NCBI GenBank assembly: GCA_040756715.1
Contig: JBFLYE010000181.1
Coordinates: 1-7,937, forward strand
Reading direction: 5' to 3'
Length of the DNA stretch: 7,937 bases
From: JBFLYE01 sp040756715 [NCBI: bacterium]
GTDB taxonomy: Bacteria; UBA9089; UBA9088
The position numbers and the translations under genes were made by a program. Under the pieces are notes generated by a model that saw nothing but the letters and a program-made list of their open reading frames with translations, was not told where the DNA came from and did no database searches. Positions 1 to 7,526 of the stretch are shown one piece after another (the first letter of the stretch is position 1; each line of letters opens with the position of its first letter).

Positions 1-63
1 AAACTTGCTTTCCTGGTTTCCTCATCATTGGCGAAATGATGAGGAAACCAGGAAAGCAAGTTT
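1..63. repeat. Perfect 29-bp fold-back palindrome at the window edge
   Basis: Bases 1-29 are the exact reverse complement of bases 35-63, with only GGCGA (30-34) as loop. The right arm lies in a readable GNAT acetyltransferase frame (NDEETRKASF), so the left arm is that coding sequence turned round rather than upstream gene sequence. It starts exactly at base 1, so the true arm length cannot be seen. A coding palindrome this perfect at an edge is typical of a chimeric read or an assembly fold-back at a contig end. A genuine inverted duplication is the alternative. There is no U-run, so I do not call it a terminator. Confidence 0.9.
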
Positions 64-1979: not shown

Positions 1980-1993
1980 TTTAAATGCTTAAG

Positions 1994-2611
1994 ATGTCAA
2001 GAGTAAAGGGATATTTTATTACAGGGCTGATTGCGGTTATCCCTATTGCAGCAACCATTGCTATCCTTATCCTTTCTTTAAAGGTTGTAAATAGCCTTTT
2101 AAGTATGCCCATATCCAGGGCTTTTGGGATAAAATATAGATTTTTATCTGGCCCTCTTGACTTTTTTTCTGGGGTGTTCATTACAATTCTTGTTATCCTT
2201 ATTGCTGGATATATTACCACAAACCTAGGAAAAAGGGGGGTATTTGGATGGATAAAAAATTTAGTAGGAAGGGTTCCTGTCATAAACAACCTCTATGCCT
2301 CAGTAAAACAGCTTGTTGAGATCTTTATTCTAAATAAGGCAATTGAAGGGTTCACCAGGGTTGTGTTGGTTGAATATCCAAGAAAGGGATTGTACGCCAT
2401 TGGTTTTGTAACCGCCAAGTCAGGAGAGGATATGGATAAGGAAACGGGAAAAAGGCTTATAAATGTTTATTTTCCAAACTCATTTGATCTAGCCTCTGGC
2501 TTTTTTGTCTTAATAGATGAGGATGAGGTGATAAAGTTGGATATTCCGGTTGATGAAGGCTTTAAAATGGTAATCTCAGGAGGCCTTATTGTTCCAGAGA
2601 AATGGCAATAA
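1994..2611 (+). CDS. DUF502 family membrane protein, first tandem copy
   Basis: A 205-aa protein of the DUF502 (PF04367) family, whose biochemical role is unknown. It has two membrane segments: one near residues 8-28, starting at the FITGLIAVIP family motif, and one near 56-76 (FSGVFITILVILIAGYI). A soluble domain follows with the conserved VVLVEYPRKGLYAIGFVT block (about 123-140) and a closing DEGFKMVISGGLIVP (about 187-201). The usual P-T-x-P-N-P-T-S-G loop is altered to PNSFDLASG. I chose the ATG at 1994 because it aligns codon for codon with the start of the second copy at exactly 650 bases offset. An in-frame ATG at 1985 would add MLK. Neither has a clear ribosome binding site. It is the first gene of a DUF502-DUF502-HU operon, 32 bases ahead of its paralogue. 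Confidence 0.85.
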   Translation: MSRVKGYFITGLIAVIPIAATIAILILSLKVVNSLLSMPISRAFGIKYRFLSGPLDFFSGVFITILVILIAGYITTNLGKRGVFGWIKNLVGRVPVINNLYASVKQLVEIFILNKAIEGFTRVVLVEYPRKGLYAIGFVTAKSGEDMDKETGKRLINVYFPNSFDLASGFFVLIDEDEVIKLDIPVDEGFKMVISGGLIVPEKWQ

Positions 2612-2643: not shown

Positions 2644-3252
2644 ATGTCAAAGGTAAAAGGATATTTTATTACAGGGCTGATTGCGGTTATCCCTATGGCA
2701 GCAACCATTGGCATTCTTATTTTTTCTTTAAAGATTACCAGAAGCCTTTTAAGTATGCCCATATCTAGGGCTTTAGGAATAAAATATGGATTTTTGTCGG
2801 GTTTTCTTGACCTTTTTGCTGGGGTTTTTATTACCATTCTTGTTATCCTTACGGCAGGATATATTACCACAAAGATAGGGAAAATAGGTGTATTTACCTG
2901 GATTGAGGGTTTAATGAAAAATCTTCCGGTGGTAAATAGCCTTTATACCTCGATAAAACAACTGGTTGATATTTTTATCTTAAATAAGGCAATTGAAGGG
3001 TTCACCAGGGTTGTGTTGGTTGAATATCCAAGAAAGGGATTGTACGCCATTGGTTTTGTAACCGCCAAATCAGGAAAGAAATTAGACGAGCTTACTGGAA
3101 GAAGGCTTATTAGCATTTATGTTCCAAAGCCATTAAGCATTGCCTCTGGTTTTTTTATTCTAGCCTGCGAGGATGAGATTATTCAGCTAGACATCCCTCT
3201 TGATGAAGGCTTTAAAATGGTTGTCTCAGCAGGGCTTGTTATTCCAAAATGA
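2644..3252 (+). CDS. DUF502 family membrane protein, second tandem copy
   Basis: A 202-aa paralogue of the preceding gene, about three quarters identical at protein level by eye. It has the same plan: FITGLIAVIP and a first membrane segment at about 8-28, a second hydrophobic segment at about 56-76, the VVLVEYPRKGLYAIGFVT block, and DEGFKMVVSAGLVIPK at the C-terminus. The DNA aligns to copy one without gaps at a 650-base offset over the first two thirds. An 88-nt stretch (2981-3068) is identical to 2331-2418, including third positions, while its flanks have diverged. The start has AGGA seven bases upstream. The TGA stop at 3250-3252 overlaps the HU gene start (ATGA), implying translational coupling. 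The function is unknown. The two copies might form a hetero-oligomer or simply be a recent duplication. Confidence 0.87.
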   Translation: MSKVKGYFITGLIAVIPMAATIGILIFSLKITRSLLSMPISRALGIKYGFLSGFLDLFAGVFITILVILTAGYITTKIGKIGVFTWIEGLMKNLPVVNSLYTSIKQLVDIFILNKAIEGFTRVVLVEYPRKGLYAIGFVTAKSGKKLDELTGRRLISIYVPKPLSIASGFFILACEDEIIQLDIPLDEGFKMVVSAGLVIPK

Positions 3253-3533: not shown

Positions 3534-3578
3534 AACAATTGATTCAAATTCCTAATTCCTAAATCCCAATTCCTAAAT
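3505..3578. repeat. Convergent ATTTAGGA-type repeat arms between HU and RluD-like genes
   Basis: The plus-strand arm (GAATTTAGAATTAGGATTT, 3506-3524) faces an inverted arm made of AATTCCTAATTCCTAAAT and a further copy at 3547-3578. The best stem pairs GAATTAGGA (3513-3521) with TCCTAATTC (3550-3558) and extends outward with one bulged base. The left arm encodes the C-terminus of HU, and the right arm encodes the C-terminus of the RluD-like protein on the other strand. It could help end transcription from both sides, but there is no clear T-run on either side. Confidence 0.6.
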
Positions 3579-4455
3579 CATTTTCTGATTGGCTAAACAT
3601 ATTGTGCATATCCTCTGGAGGCTCTACCACAAAGGAGAGGGGTTTATTTGTTATGGGATGGGGAAAAGATAAAGAAAAGGCATGGAGGAAAGAGCGATTG
3701 ATTAAGCTTGTCTTTTTTCCATATGCCTTATCACCGATTACAGGGTGTTGGATGCTTGCCAGATGAACCCTTATCTGGTGTGTCCTTCCTGTTTCAAGGG
3801 AAACCTCTAATAATGACATATCCTTTCTTCTTTCTAATACCTTGTAAAATGTCTTTGCTTTCTTCATCTTCCTCCCATAGGGTTTCATCAACACCCCTCC
3901 TTTTTTTGGCCTTCCAATGGGAATTGAAATTTCTCCCTTATCTTCCTTTACACTCCCTAATACCCAGGCAAGATACCTTCTCTTAACAAAGCGCTCTTTT
4001 ATCATCTTTACTAATCTTTCGTATGCCTCTTTTGTTTTTGCTATAACAATAAGCCCGGATGTATCCTTATCAAGCCTGTGGACAATCCCTGGTCTATCTG
4101 GATTACCTGTATCTGGAAGGGAGGTATGAAAAAGGAGGGCATTAACCAATGTCGCCTTCCTTATCTTTGCTGTTGGATGGGTAATCATACCCGCTGGCTT
4201 ATTGACAACAATTATATCAGAATCTTCATAGACAATATCCAAAGGAACATTTTCTGGCTTAATTGCGGTATCTTCAAAGGCAATTTCAATCCTTTCCCCT
4301 ATTTTTGTCTTATGATGTGGCTTTATAAATTTTCCATCTACCTTAACTTTGCCCTCCTTTATCAAAAATGCTACCTTTGACCTTGATAAATTAAGCCTTT
4401 TTGATAAAAATATATCAATTCTTTCACCCCCTCTATCAACTATAGTATCTTCCAT
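3559..4455 (-). CDS. rluD: RluA/RluD-family 23S rRNA pseudouridine synthase
   Basis: A 298-aa cytoplasmic enzyme of normal family length that converts specific uridines in RNA to pseudouridine. It has an N-terminal S4 RNA-binding domain (about 11-60: RIDIFLSKRLNLSRSKVAFLI, then KVKVDGK). The catalytic domain opens with VVNKPAGMITHP (about 83-94). The catalytic motif HRLDKDTSGL is at 126-135, with the active Asp at 129, and the conserved ETGRTHQIRVH is at 221-231. The S4 domain plus this length favour RluD-like enzymes (helix 69 of 23S rRNA) over RluA, but the exact target is not certain. The ATG at 4455 fits the domain start; its ribosome binding site is weak. The C-terminal tail NDLGIGI is read from an inverted ATTTAGGA repeat and is unlikely to be functional. 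The gene stands alone on the minus strand, with the repeat copy at 4482-4630 just upstream. Confidence 0.92.
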   Translation of the reverse strand: MEDTIVDRGGERIDIFLSKRLNLSRSKVAFLIKEGKVKVDGKFIKPHHKTKIGERIEIAFEDTAIKPENVPLDIVYEDSDIIVVNKPAGMITHPTAKIRKATLVNALLFHTSLPDTGNPDRPGIVHRLDKDTSGLIVIAKTKEAYERLVKMIKERFVKRRYLAWVLGSVKEDKGEISIPIGRPKKGGVLMKPYGRKMKKAKTFYKVLERRKDMSLLEVSLETGRTHQIRVHLASIQHPVIGDKAYGKKTSLINRSFLHAFSLSFPHPITNKPLSFVVEPPEDMHNMFSQSENDLGIGI

Positions 4456-4481
4456 TACTTAGTGCAAAAATAGATAGGGTT

Positions 4482-4630
4482 GTGTTTATCTGTTAAAAAT
4501 TCATCCACCTTTTAAGAAATTTTGAATTCTAAATTTCAAAATTCAACATTCAAAATTCATAATTTTATAAAGTTTTCCTTAAGATTATCTAAACACATAC
4601 ATTTTGTAAAGCGTTATGGAATTAACTATA
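4482..4630. repeat. Intergenic repeat, copy A (upstream of the rluD-like gene)
   Basis: Three blocks are shared with 7384-7526. Bases 4511-4536 equal 7396-7421 (26 nt). Bases 4535-4572 equal 7470-7507 (38 nt). Bases 4607-4630 match 7503-7526 with one difference. A looser TGTGTTTA.CTGTT block near 4484 also matches near 7385. Copy A has a 34-nt insertion (4573-4606) bounded by TAAAG repeats where copy B runs straight on. Copy B has about 48 nt that copy A lacks. Both copies sit 20-30 bases ahead of a minus-strand gene, so they could carry promoter or leader signals, or be a dispersed palindromic repeat. Confidence 0.75.
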
Positions 4631-4671
4631 CCTTAAGCTTGCCATCCATCTATTTTATTATACTTAACTTT

Positions 4672-4735
4672 ATGGTAATATATCCAGCAATTGATATTAG
4701 GGAGGGAAGGGCTTACACAGGGAGATTTTAAAAGG
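4672..4735 (+). pseudogene. hisA: hisA 5' fragment (with an 8-nt internal loss)
   Basis: The ATG at 4672 opens MVIYPAIDIREGR, the canonical start of HisA, the ProFAR isomerase of histidine synthesis. One frame over, 4712-4735 continues as LTQGDFKR, again canonical HisA. Between Arg13 and Leu the family has Cys-Val-Arg (9 nt), but only one base is present, so about 8 nt are missing and the frame is broken. HisA is normally about 240 aa, and here the match ends after about 24 residues, where glycosyltransferase sequence begins. TATACT lies shortly before the ATG (4660-4665) and may be part of the old upstream region. It is oriented opposite to the intact genes on both sides. Confidence 0.7.
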
Positions 4736-5041
4736 TAATTGTTCAAAAATCTCTTAAGGAAGGATTTCGAGGCCCTGTGGAAGGCAAAGGCGGTTGTAGC
4801 TTCCAATGTAGGTGGTATTCCTTTGCAGATAAAGCATAAATACTCCGGTCTTTTATGTCATTCCATTGAAGGTGCTGCCTTTGCCATAAAACAGTTGCTT
4901 AATAGTCCAGAATATGCCAAAAAATTAGGAGAAAATGGCAAAGAGCATATAAAAAATAATTTTCTCCTTACCAGACACTTAAGGGATTATATGCTCTTAT
5001 TTCTTTCTTTATCTCACAATGAGGATATTGTTTATTTATAG
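4735..5041 (+). pseudogene. GT4-family glycosyltransferase, C-terminal fragment (frameshifted)
   Basis: The fragment starts mid-protein as VIVQKSLKEGF (4735-4767). After a single base it continues in the next frame with EALWKAKAVVASNVGG, then IPLQI, SGLLCHSIEGAA, and the C-terminus NFLLTRHLRDYMLLFLSL to a TAG at 5039-5041. In GT4 enzymes of the trehalose-synthase (TreT) type the join normally reads EGFGLxVxEALWK, so about 14 nt are missing. These are the nucleotide-sugar-binding C-terminal features of a GT-B fold. The N-terminal acceptor half, about 300 residues, is absent. The TTG at 4739 would open a frame but gives a nonsense N-terminus, so I do not treat it as a gene. The fragment joins hisA sequence without a gap. 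Confidence 0.75.
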
Positions 5042-5105
5042 CATCTTTCATAAATGATTCAGAGAGACAGATTAAATCAGTAAACTTTGGCAAAGTTTAA
5101 GATAG

Positions 5106-6605
5106 CTATTTGGTATAGGATTTTGCTATCCTTACCTTTCCCTTTTTCTTAAGCCAATCATACCAATTCCCTAAGATTCTATCCCTCTTTTTAGCTAATG
5201 CATAACCCCTTATTTCTTTATATTCCTCCTTAAACCTTTTTTCTTCGGATGACAGGAATTTATTAACCCTTATGATATGAAAGCCAAACCCTGTTTTTGT
5301 TACGGTGGAAACCTCATTTTCCTTTAAAGAGAAGATAACCTCGGAAAGCTCAGGGGCAATAAACCTTCCATAGGCTACCTCGCTGTTTAATTTCTCAAGC
5401 AAATCCCTGTTTTCCTTTGTATCGGTTCCCGAAAGGACAAGCTTTGGAAGTATTCCAATCCTTCCTTGATACCTTTTTGAAAAGCTACCATTGGAATAAA
5501 GGGAAACACCCTGTTCAAATGTTAGTGTTCCGCCTCTTATCTTTTCTAAAACAAGGTCTGCTGTTTTTGATGCACTTCCAATTGCTTCGTCTTCATTCCT
5601 TAATTCTTTTTTTATCTCTTCTTCTGCCTCTTTTAATGTCTTTGGAACATCGGGCTTTTTCTCTTCGCATTTAATGATATGATAGCCAAATCTTGTCTTT
5701 ACAATATCGGATATTCTCCCTGGCTCTAAGGCATAAGCGGCCTTTTCAAAATCAGGGTCCATCCTTCCTGGGCCAAAAAATCCTAAGTCTCCACCGTTAA
5801 CCTTTGAGGGGCAATCTGAATTATTCTTGGCAAGCTCGGAAAAATCAGCACCACTCCTTAGCTGTTGCATAATGGAAGAAATCCTATTTTTCGCTGCCGT
5901 ATCTTGCTCCTTTGTTGGCTTTGGAGGAACAAAAACAAGGATGTGCCGAACCCTTATGTCTCCTGGCTTTTTGTAATTATCCTTAAATTCATCATATTGC
6001 TCCTTTATCCTTTTAGAAGAAACATAGAATGTTGGATCAATAAGAATATGGGAGACATCTGCCTGCTTATAATTATCATTAAAAAACTCCCTAATTTCAA
6101 AGTTTGTAACATCAATTGGGTCACAAACAATGCTTTCCATCTTTGAGATTAAAAGCTCATCCCTTACCTCATTTTCTTTGGCTCTCCAATATGCTGAATT
6201 CCAAACTTTTCTTGCCTGCTGATATGTTGCATCATCGGGAAATGAAAGTCTCATTGCCTGAATTACCTCTTTATCTGTTACAGAAAGACCCATCTTCTTT
6301 GCCTCTTTGAATAAAAGCTTTCTCTTTATTACCTCATCCAATGCCCTTTTATCAAGGTCAGGAATCATAGACTCATCAAAATCCTTAAACCTTTGTTTAT
6401 ACCTTTCTACTATCCTTCCCTTTGATTCCCTATACTCAATCTCGGTAATCTCCTTTCCATCTATTGAGCCATACAAAGGCTCTTTGCTTTTATACTGGCT
6501 TCCTGTCTGTCTCATTCCCCAGCTTATGAATATTGTTCCAATCACAAAGCTTATCATCAAAGCCCAAAATATTGGTTTTGCCTTTCTCCTTAATACCCTT
6601 ATCAT
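5106..6605 (-). CDS. Membrane-anchored parvulin-type peptidyl-prolyl isomerase (SurA/PpiD-like)
   Basis: A 499-aa protein with a short basic N-terminus and one membrane segment (residues about 12-30, IFWALMISFVIGTIFISWG). This anchors it in the inner membrane with the rest in the periplasm, as in PpiD. A SurA-type chaperone region follows (about 45-200; SIDGKEITEIEY, then LDEVIKRKLLFKEAKKMGLSVTD). A full parvulin domain is at about 217-312, with RHILV, GADFSELAKNNSDCPSK, GGDLGFFGPGRM and FGYHIIK. A second, degenerate parvulin-like half is at about 370-447; it keeps FSLKENEVSTV and FGFHIIRV but lacks the GGDLG part. Role: folding of outer-membrane or exported proteins through prolyl isomerisation. 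The start ATG has only AGG three bases upstream and a strong promoter almost adjoining. It lies downstream of rsmD after a 171-base gap, so it is probably transcribed from its own promoter. Confidence 0.88.
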   Translation of the reverse strand: MIRVLRRKAKPIFWALMISFVIGTIFISWGMRQTGSQYKSKEPLYGSIDGKEITEIEYRESKGRIVERYKQRFKDFDESMIPDLDKRALDEVIKRKLLFKEAKKMGLSVTDKEVIQAMRLSFPDDATYQQARKVWNSAYWRAKENEVRDELLISKMESIVCDPIDVTNFEIREFFNDNYKQADVSHILIDPTFYVSSKRIKEQYDEFKDNYKKPGDIRVRHILVFVPPKPTKEQDTAAKNRISSIMQQLRSGADFSELAKNNSDCPSKVNGGDLGFFGPGRMDPDFEKAAYALEPGRISDIVKTRFGYHIIKCEEKKPDVPKTLKEAEEEIKKELRNEDEAIGSASKTADLVLEKIRGGTLTFEQGVSLYSNGSFSKRYQGRIGILPKLVLSGTDTKENRDLLEKLNSEVAYGRFIAPELSEVIFSLKENEVSTVTKTGFGFHIIRVNKFLSSEEKRFKEEYKEIRGYALAKKRDRILGNWYDWLKKKGKVRIAKSYTK

Positions 6606-7364: not shown

Positions 7365-7383
7365 AATGTAACCATAATTCGTA

Positions 7384-7526
7384 TGTGTTTAGCTGTTTAA
7401 GAAATTTTGAATTCTAAATTTTGAATTTTGGATTGAAGGTTAAGTTTTATAAAATTTTTCCCCTTTTAATTCAAAATTCAACATTCAAAATTCATAATTT
7501 TATAAAGCGTTGTGGAATTAACTATA
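7384..7526. repeat. Intergenic repeat, copy B (between GT9 gene and rsmD)
   Basis: It shares its blocks with 4482-4630. The 24-nt right-hand block (7503-7526) overlaps the last two codons and stop of the GT9 gene. Internally it is quasi-palindromic: TTTTGAATTTTG (7419-7430) faces TTCAAAATTCAAC and TTCAAAATTC further right. Copy A contains the GT9-tail block without the GT9 gene, so copy A looks like a duplicated and rearranged derivative of this arrangement, or both derive from one repeat family. Confidence 0.75.

What the first reader, a model, noticed from the sequence alone, without database searches (positions are those of the whole stretch)
4672..5041. hisA head fused to a glycosyltransferase tail, each scarred by a small deletion
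The first two dozen codons of hisA run directly into the C-terminal third of a GT4 enzyme, with overlap at base 4735. hisA has lost about 8 nt and the glycosyltransferase about 14 nt, both inside well-conserved motifs. Two unrelated gene scraps joined with short deletions and bounded by an intergenic repeat look like the product of illegitimate recombination, in DNA that still keeps clear protein similarity and so decayed recently.
Basis: partly seen in the sequence, partly recalled or inferred. Interest (0 to 1): 0.6.

Follow-up and report, generated by a model that had tools for sequence, protein, structure and literature searches.

The report
Gene debris at a rearrangement join
Between two working genes of an unnamed bacterium lie the broken start of a histidine gene and the broken end of a sugar-transferase gene, ordinary leftovers of recent genome reshuffling, beside a small mobile repeat that seems to have given the neighbouring gene a new start codon.

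Summary
Window 4672-4735 is the head of hisA lacking 8 nt; 4735-5041 is the last quarter of a TreT-like GT4 gene lacking 14 nt. They meet with a 1-nt overlap and make no fusion protein. The interpretation changes. In a same-genus genome (G001) hisA and rluD are divergent neighbours 24 bp apart, so the hisA head sits beside its normal neighbour, not as an unrelated scrap. The window's genome has an intact hisA on contig C26, next to murA, and there the reverse is seen: hisA beside a ~100-nt scrap of rluD. Best reading: a segment with rluD and the hisA start was duplicated, each copy kept one gene, and the hisA end fused non-homologously to a treT-like gene not found elsewhere in the assembly. 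The treT tail shows no excess amino-acid change, so decay is recent. The 'intergenic repeat' is a TA-target MITE (window copy 4441-4630; 100 right and 96 left ends in 1.55 Mb) sitting in the old 5' end of rluD, whose frame now starts in it (MEDTI-). All belongs to known kinds.

The parts
3559..4455 (-). rluD-like pseudouridine synthase gene, open full length; its first codons (MEDTI) lie in the end of the MITE
   Evidence: TIGR00005 279 bits; 86% nt to G001 rluD; G001 protein starts MDCNLKVIISDIEGERIDIF, this one MEDTIVDRGGERIDIF
4441..4630 (+). MITE copy, 190 bp, imperfect terminal inverted repeats (20 of 29 positions), TA target; inserted in the old 5' end of rluD
   Evidence: length 190; the two sides are neighbours in G001; inverted-repeat identity; 100 right and 96 left ends in the genome, 0 in the reversed-pattern controls
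4631..4649 (-). original first codons of rluD, cut off on the far side of the MITE
   Evidence: comparison with the G001 rluD start
4650..4671 (+). upstream region of hisA (old rluD/hisA intergenic space)
   Evidence: aligned to G001 and C26; over the upstream part of that alignment, which also takes in 4632-4649, 34 of 39 (G001) and 31 of 39 (C26) columns are identical
4672..4735 (+). hisA head (about 21 codons), 8-nt deletion near 4711, stop at 4729-4731
4735..5041 (+). tail of a TreT-like GT4 gene, 14-nt deletion near 4767; about the last 90 codons open
5041..5103 (.). second join: the match to the G001 treT-like gene ends at 5040 and the match to the G001 surA block begins at 5103
   Evidence: in G001 surA is followed by a protease-like gene and trp-like genes, names by eye
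5106..6605 (-). surA-like gene (SurA_N and rotamase domains), open full length, converging on the debris
   Evidence: 88% nt to G001

Best explanation
The stretch is non-coding debris left by genome rearrangement. Shown: rluD and hisA are divergent neighbours in G001; in the window's genome rluD is open here beside a broken hisA head, while hisA is intact on contig C26 beside a broken rluD scrap; the hisA head runs at base 4735 into the tail of a treT-like gene for which no other copy was found in the assembly. Inferred: a segment with rluD and at least the start of hisA was duplicated or relocated; the two copies lost opposite genes; a non-homologous deletion or join fused the hisA head to the treT tail; small frame-breaking deletions came before or after. 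Separately, a TA-target MITE inserted in rluD's 5' end and probably supplies its start codon now. C26 is probably the original site, because hisA-murA is kept there and a nuoE-like gene (name by eye) that follows rluD in G001 is on the same contig.
For: Divergent rluD/hisA, 24 bp apart, in G001 (hisA 11610-12332 minus, rluD 12357-13250 plus). Intact hisA at C26:628-1353, over the TIGR00007 cut-off. rluD scrap at C26 495-599, matching window 3812-3918 and G001 rluD. hisA-murA order on C26, G001 and G002. The gene after rluD in G001 matches C26 5383-5835 at 90%. No second copy of the treT-like gene found (6 of 6 candidates scored, other matches at most 36% aa; 40 of 84 candidates scored, only this tail and two places on C174 that match a non-coding stretch after the G001 gene). 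Join overlaps by one base. No consistent excess of nonsynonymous change in the treT tail. The sequences on the two sides of the MITE are neighbours in G001.
Against: Reads were not available, so a chimeric join at 4735 cannot be excluded. The 32-mer across the join was not found in viral contigs; this says little, because that collection is viral and near copies of this genome may be left out. The hisA head is equally close to C26 and to G001 (58 of 61 coding columns each), so the age of the duplication is unresolved. In G002 rluD and hisA are not neighbours, so the adjacency is shown in one relative only. The rluD-side flank of the MITE aligns to G001 only from its 13th base, so the empty site is not exact on that side. 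The treT tail has a higher dS to G001 (0.79) than four other genes (0.40-0.62), so it may not be a strict ortholog. The assembly is 96% complete, so an intact treT-like gene could be missing.
Confidence: 0.78

Rival explanations
1. Single deletion in place: rluD, hisA and treT once lay in this order here, and one deletion removed the rest of hisA and the head of treT. The hisA on C26 is then an older paralogue or a later gain. (Overlaps with the best explanation in its last step.)
For: Same orientation of both pieces and a 1-nt overlap fit one deletion. No treT head found elsewhere in the assembly.
Against: C26 keeps the hisA-murA order and a rluD scrap, which this does not explain without a duplication as well.
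Confidence: 0.3
2. Assembly artefact: the join at 4735 (or the 14- and 8-nt gaps) comes from chimeric or poor reads in a draft assembly.
For: Draft genome in 218 contigs; two other copies of the MITE contain runs of ten N, so scaffolding across repeats happened; the window's MITE copy is 190 bp against 243 and 259 bp in the two other complete copies measured.
Against: The hisA head differs from C26 hisA by substitutions as well as the gap, and no other source of the treT tail was found, so neither piece is a misplaced copy of assembled sequence. A 1-nt overlap is too short for an assembler to join on (recalled).
Confidence: 0.1
3. Illegitimate recombination of two unrelated scraps captured or moved by the repeat, the stronger form of the first reader's idea.
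For: A high-copy repeat lies next to the debris.
Against: The two sides of this MITE copy are neighbours in G001, so the element need not have carried the scrap; hisA's neighbour is its normal neighbour.
Confidence: 0.04

Closest known systems
Bacterial pseudogene debris and complementary loss after segmental duplication (general knowledge, recalled)
   Same: Frame-broken, truncated pieces with intact relatives; each copy of a duplicated neighbourhood keeps a different gene.
   Different: Nothing essential; the two reciprocal scraps (hisA head here, rluD scrap on C26) make the history readable.
RUP-type MITEs of Streptococcus pneumoniae (IS630-related, TA target, 107 bp, 108 copies; passages of PMC2229807)
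   Same: Short, non-autonomous, inverted-repeat ends, TA target, about a hundred copies.
   Different: Longer (190-259 bp in three copies); no transposase with the same ends found (only DDE_3 was searched).
MITEs with start codons at their ends (MITEAba12; passages of PMC6382973)
   Same: A start codon plus a few codons at the element end could open into a neighbouring gene.
   Different: Here one conserved end (MEDTI-) starts full-length frames of rluD and of a WecA/MraY-like gene (name by eye).

Membership tests
Pseudogene (hisA head, treT-like tail) | Truncation or frameshift relative to intact homologues | tested here: met
   8-nt and 14-nt gaps and missing ends
Pseudogene (hisA head, treT-like tail) | Intact homologue in the genome or close relatives | tested here: met
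   hisA on C26, GT4 in G001
Pseudogene (hisA head, treT-like tail) | No functional product | not testable with these tools
   needs expression data
TreT (NCBIfam NF041139) | Score over the curated cut-off | tested here: not met
   intact G001 protein 357 bits against cut-off 775; hence 'TreT-like' only
MITE (TA-target type) | Terminal inverted repeats | tested here: met
   20 of 29 positions match
MITE (TA-target type) | TA target duplication shown by an empty site | tested here: inconclusive
   one site, rluD 5' end against G001: TA at both ends and the hisA-side flank continues as in G001; the rluD-side flank aligns only from its 13th base
MITE (TA-target type) | Short, many copies | tested here: met
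   190, 243 and 259 bp in the three complete copies measured; 100 right and 96 left ends
MITE (TA-target type) | Autonomous parent with the same ends | tested here: not met
   the one DDE_3 (IS630-type) match in the genome, on C164, lacks these ends within the 3.3 kb held; other transposase families were not searched

The most novel reading that the evidence does not exclude
The MITE next to the debris is a start-codon donor: its left end, read outward, is ATG plus four sense codons ending in the TA target, and this genome keeps insertions at gene starts where that codon replaces the lost native start (rluD here, a WecA/MraY-like gene on C92).
Probability: 0.35. Interest if true: 0.4.

Novelty: new member of a known kind. 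Interest (0 to 1): 0.2.

Why it matters
For the finding itself, little: it is a readable example of how duplication, complementary gene loss and small deletions leave debris, and it corrects the idea that two unrelated scraps were joined. The MITE gives a small testable point: whether a mobile element's end can rescue genes it hits by supplying their start codon.

Tried and rejected
A hisA-treT fusion protein was rejected: no frame runs through the join. No tRNA and no Rfam family at gathering score was found in the window. Import of the treT tail from Omnitrophota was considered because its protein is 91-94% identical to six of their loci. At the DNA level G001 scores highest (320 bits, 82% over 320 columns); the next is 284 bits (79%), and L084 reaches 81% over 273 columns only. 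It was not preferred but is not excluded. The IS630-type transposase on C164 as parent of the MITE was rejected because the element's ends were not found around it. Dating the duplication from the hisA head failed: too few sites.

The start-codon idea was tested on 96 distinct left flanks of at least 150 bases; one search also lists 96 left ends, but I did not match the two lists one by one, and the shortest flank (220 bases) cannot reach 80 codons in any frame. In frame with the element's ATG, 13 of 96 stay open for 100 codons or more, against 6 and 5 of 96 in the other frames (one-sided binomial P 0.028); at 80 codons 16 against 6 and 6 (P 0.008); at 60 codons 18 against 8 and 8 (P 0.014); at 40 codons 18 against 16 and 14 (P 0.32). 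The thresholds were not chosen beforehand. Two of the 13 (L297, L295) have AGG where others have the ATG. At the right end 0 of 54 distinct flanks held reach 100 codons in frame, against 2 and 6 of 54 in the other frames (one search lists 100 right ends). Eight of the 18 genes with 40 or more in-frame codons were searched in G001 as one joined query; 4 of the 8 matched, at 5 places. With rluD, five genes were compared: rluD and the WecA/MraY-like gene appear to have lost their native start to the element, the ThrC-like gene has an ATG of its own right after the element, the protease-like gene is cut internally, and the Cas1-like frame stops after 85 codons. So 2 of 5 are clean cases. The names ThrC, Cas1, WecA/MraY, LpxK, TolC, NuoE, MurA, OtsB and Trp are by eye from translations, not from a family search.

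One search scored only 7 candidates per genome, so absence from its table proves nothing. Searches scored 40 candidates in G000 and are lower bounds; the MITE counts used come. The seven relatives were picked from 80 loci. Papers: four listings seen and passages of PMC2229807 and PMC6382973; no paper was read whole.

Full report
What is there. The window is a whole contig (C181, 7,937 bases) of a draft genome of 1.55 Mb in 218 contigs, 96% complete. Around the finding, from left to right: a rluD-like gene on the minus strand (3559-4455), a repeat (4441-4630), the head of hisA (4672-4735), the tail of a GT4 gene (4735-5041) and a surA-like gene on the minus strand (5106-6605).

The hisA head matches both the intact hisA of the same genome on contig C26 and hisA of the same-genus genome G001; one 8-nt gap near base 4711 is seen against both. 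The GT4 tail matches a 403-aa gene of G001 at 82% with one 14-nt gap near base 4767. The two matches share base 4735 only. Translating three frames shows none that runs through: the hisA head stops at 4729-4731 and the GT4 tail is open from 4739. The intact G001 relative scores best against TreT_Thcocales but far below its cut-off (357 against 775 bits), so I call it TreT-like.

hisA belongs beside rluD. In G001 hisA (11610-12332, minus) and rluD (12357-13250, plus) are divergent and 24 bp apart. In the window the same order is seen, opened by the repeat: on one side rluD, on the other the old first codons of rluD followed by the hisA upstream region and hisA. So the hisA head lies by its normal neighbour and is not an unrelated scrap.

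The mirror image. On C26 the intact hisA is followed by murA, as in G001 and G002, and is preceded by about 100 nt of rluD (C26 495-599, matching window 3812-3918) and by the end of a TolC-like gene whose G001 relative lies in an open frame of 490 aa. A nuoE-like gene that follows rluD in G001 is also on C26, at 90%. The rluD-hisA neighbourhood is therefore present twice in this genome, and each copy has kept the gene that the other lost. The simplest account is duplication or relocation of a segment with rluD and at least the start of hisA, then complementary loss. C26 looks like the original site. The age cannot be told: the hisA head is equally close to C26 and G001 (58 of 61 coding columns each). 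In G002 rluD and hisA lie apart, so the adjacency rests on one relative.

The GT4 tail. No second copy was found in the assembly: the other matches to its protein are at most 36% identical, and the G001 region around the gene finds only this tail and two places on C174 that match non-coding DNA after it (40 of 84 candidates scored). In G001 the gene lies in one run with a 219-aa gene and an otsB-like gene (name by eye). Against G001 the tail has 12 nonsynonymous and 30 synonymous differences in 90 codons, dN/dS 0.076. Against seven further relatives its dN is higher than that of the intact G001 gene in three and lower in four. Its dS to G001 (0.79) is higher than that of rluD, surA, hisA and murA (0.40-0.62), so strict orthology is uncertain. 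The match to the G001 gene ends at 5040 and a match to the G001 surA region begins at 5103, where G001 has other genes: a second join.

The repeat. It is MITE-like: inverted-repeat ends (20 of 29 positions); TA at both ends, at a place where G001 has rluD and hisA without it, though the rluD-side flank aligns to G001 only from its 13th base; 190 bp here and 243 and 259 bp in the two other complete copies measured; 100 right and 96 left ends in the genome, none in the reversed-pattern controls. Counted by hand, 31 of the 100 right ends start within 108 bases of the start of a contig, so the element also breaks the assembly. The one DDE_3 transposase match in the genome lacks these ends; other transposase families were not searched. 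The insertion cut off the native start of rluD; the present rluD frame starts with ATG and four codons from the element end (MEDTI-).

A side test. Over 96 left flanks, frames open for 100 codons or more are commoner in frame with the element's ATG (13) than in the other two frames (6 and 5): P 0.028; at 80 codons P 0.008, at 60 codons 0.014, at 40 codons 0.32, so the signal depends on the threshold. At the right end the in-frame count is 0 of 54, below the other frames (2 and 6). Of five genes compared with G001, two (rluD and a WecA/MraY-like gene) appear to have exchanged their native start for the element's. Start codons at MITE ends and in-frame MITE fusions are in print (passages of PMC6382973 and PMC2229807).

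Verdict. Real, ordinary debris of rearrangement and gene loss, with a readable history and a modestly interesting mobile element beside it. Assembly error is unlikely but not excluded without reads.

Noticed in passing
window 4441-4630 and about 100 places in the genome: MITE-like repeat with TA target whose left end carries an outward ATG and four codons (MEDTI); appears to replace the native start of rluD here and of a WecA/MraY-like gene on C92.
   Followed up: yes
window 7374-7526: A related repeat copy between the rsmD-like and GT9 genes; it has the right end but not the usual left end, and the GT9 stop codon lies in its end.
   Followed up: partly
window 1985-2611 and 2644-3252: Tandem DUF502 genes, 81% alike over 300 nt, share a perfectly identical run of 88 bases (from 2331 and 2981), which looks like gene conversion.
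   Followed up: partly
window 1-63: A perfect 29-base inverted repeat with a 5-base loop at the very start of the contig, perhaps a foldback at a contig end.
   Followed up: no
L015 (contig C26) 1-600: MITE end, then the tail of a TolC-like gene, then a rluD scrap, then intact hisA: a second rearrangement join in the same genome.
   Followed up: yes
L234, MITE on contig C70: A MITE sits at the start of a Cas1-like frame (name by eye) that stops after 85 codons.
   Followed up: partly
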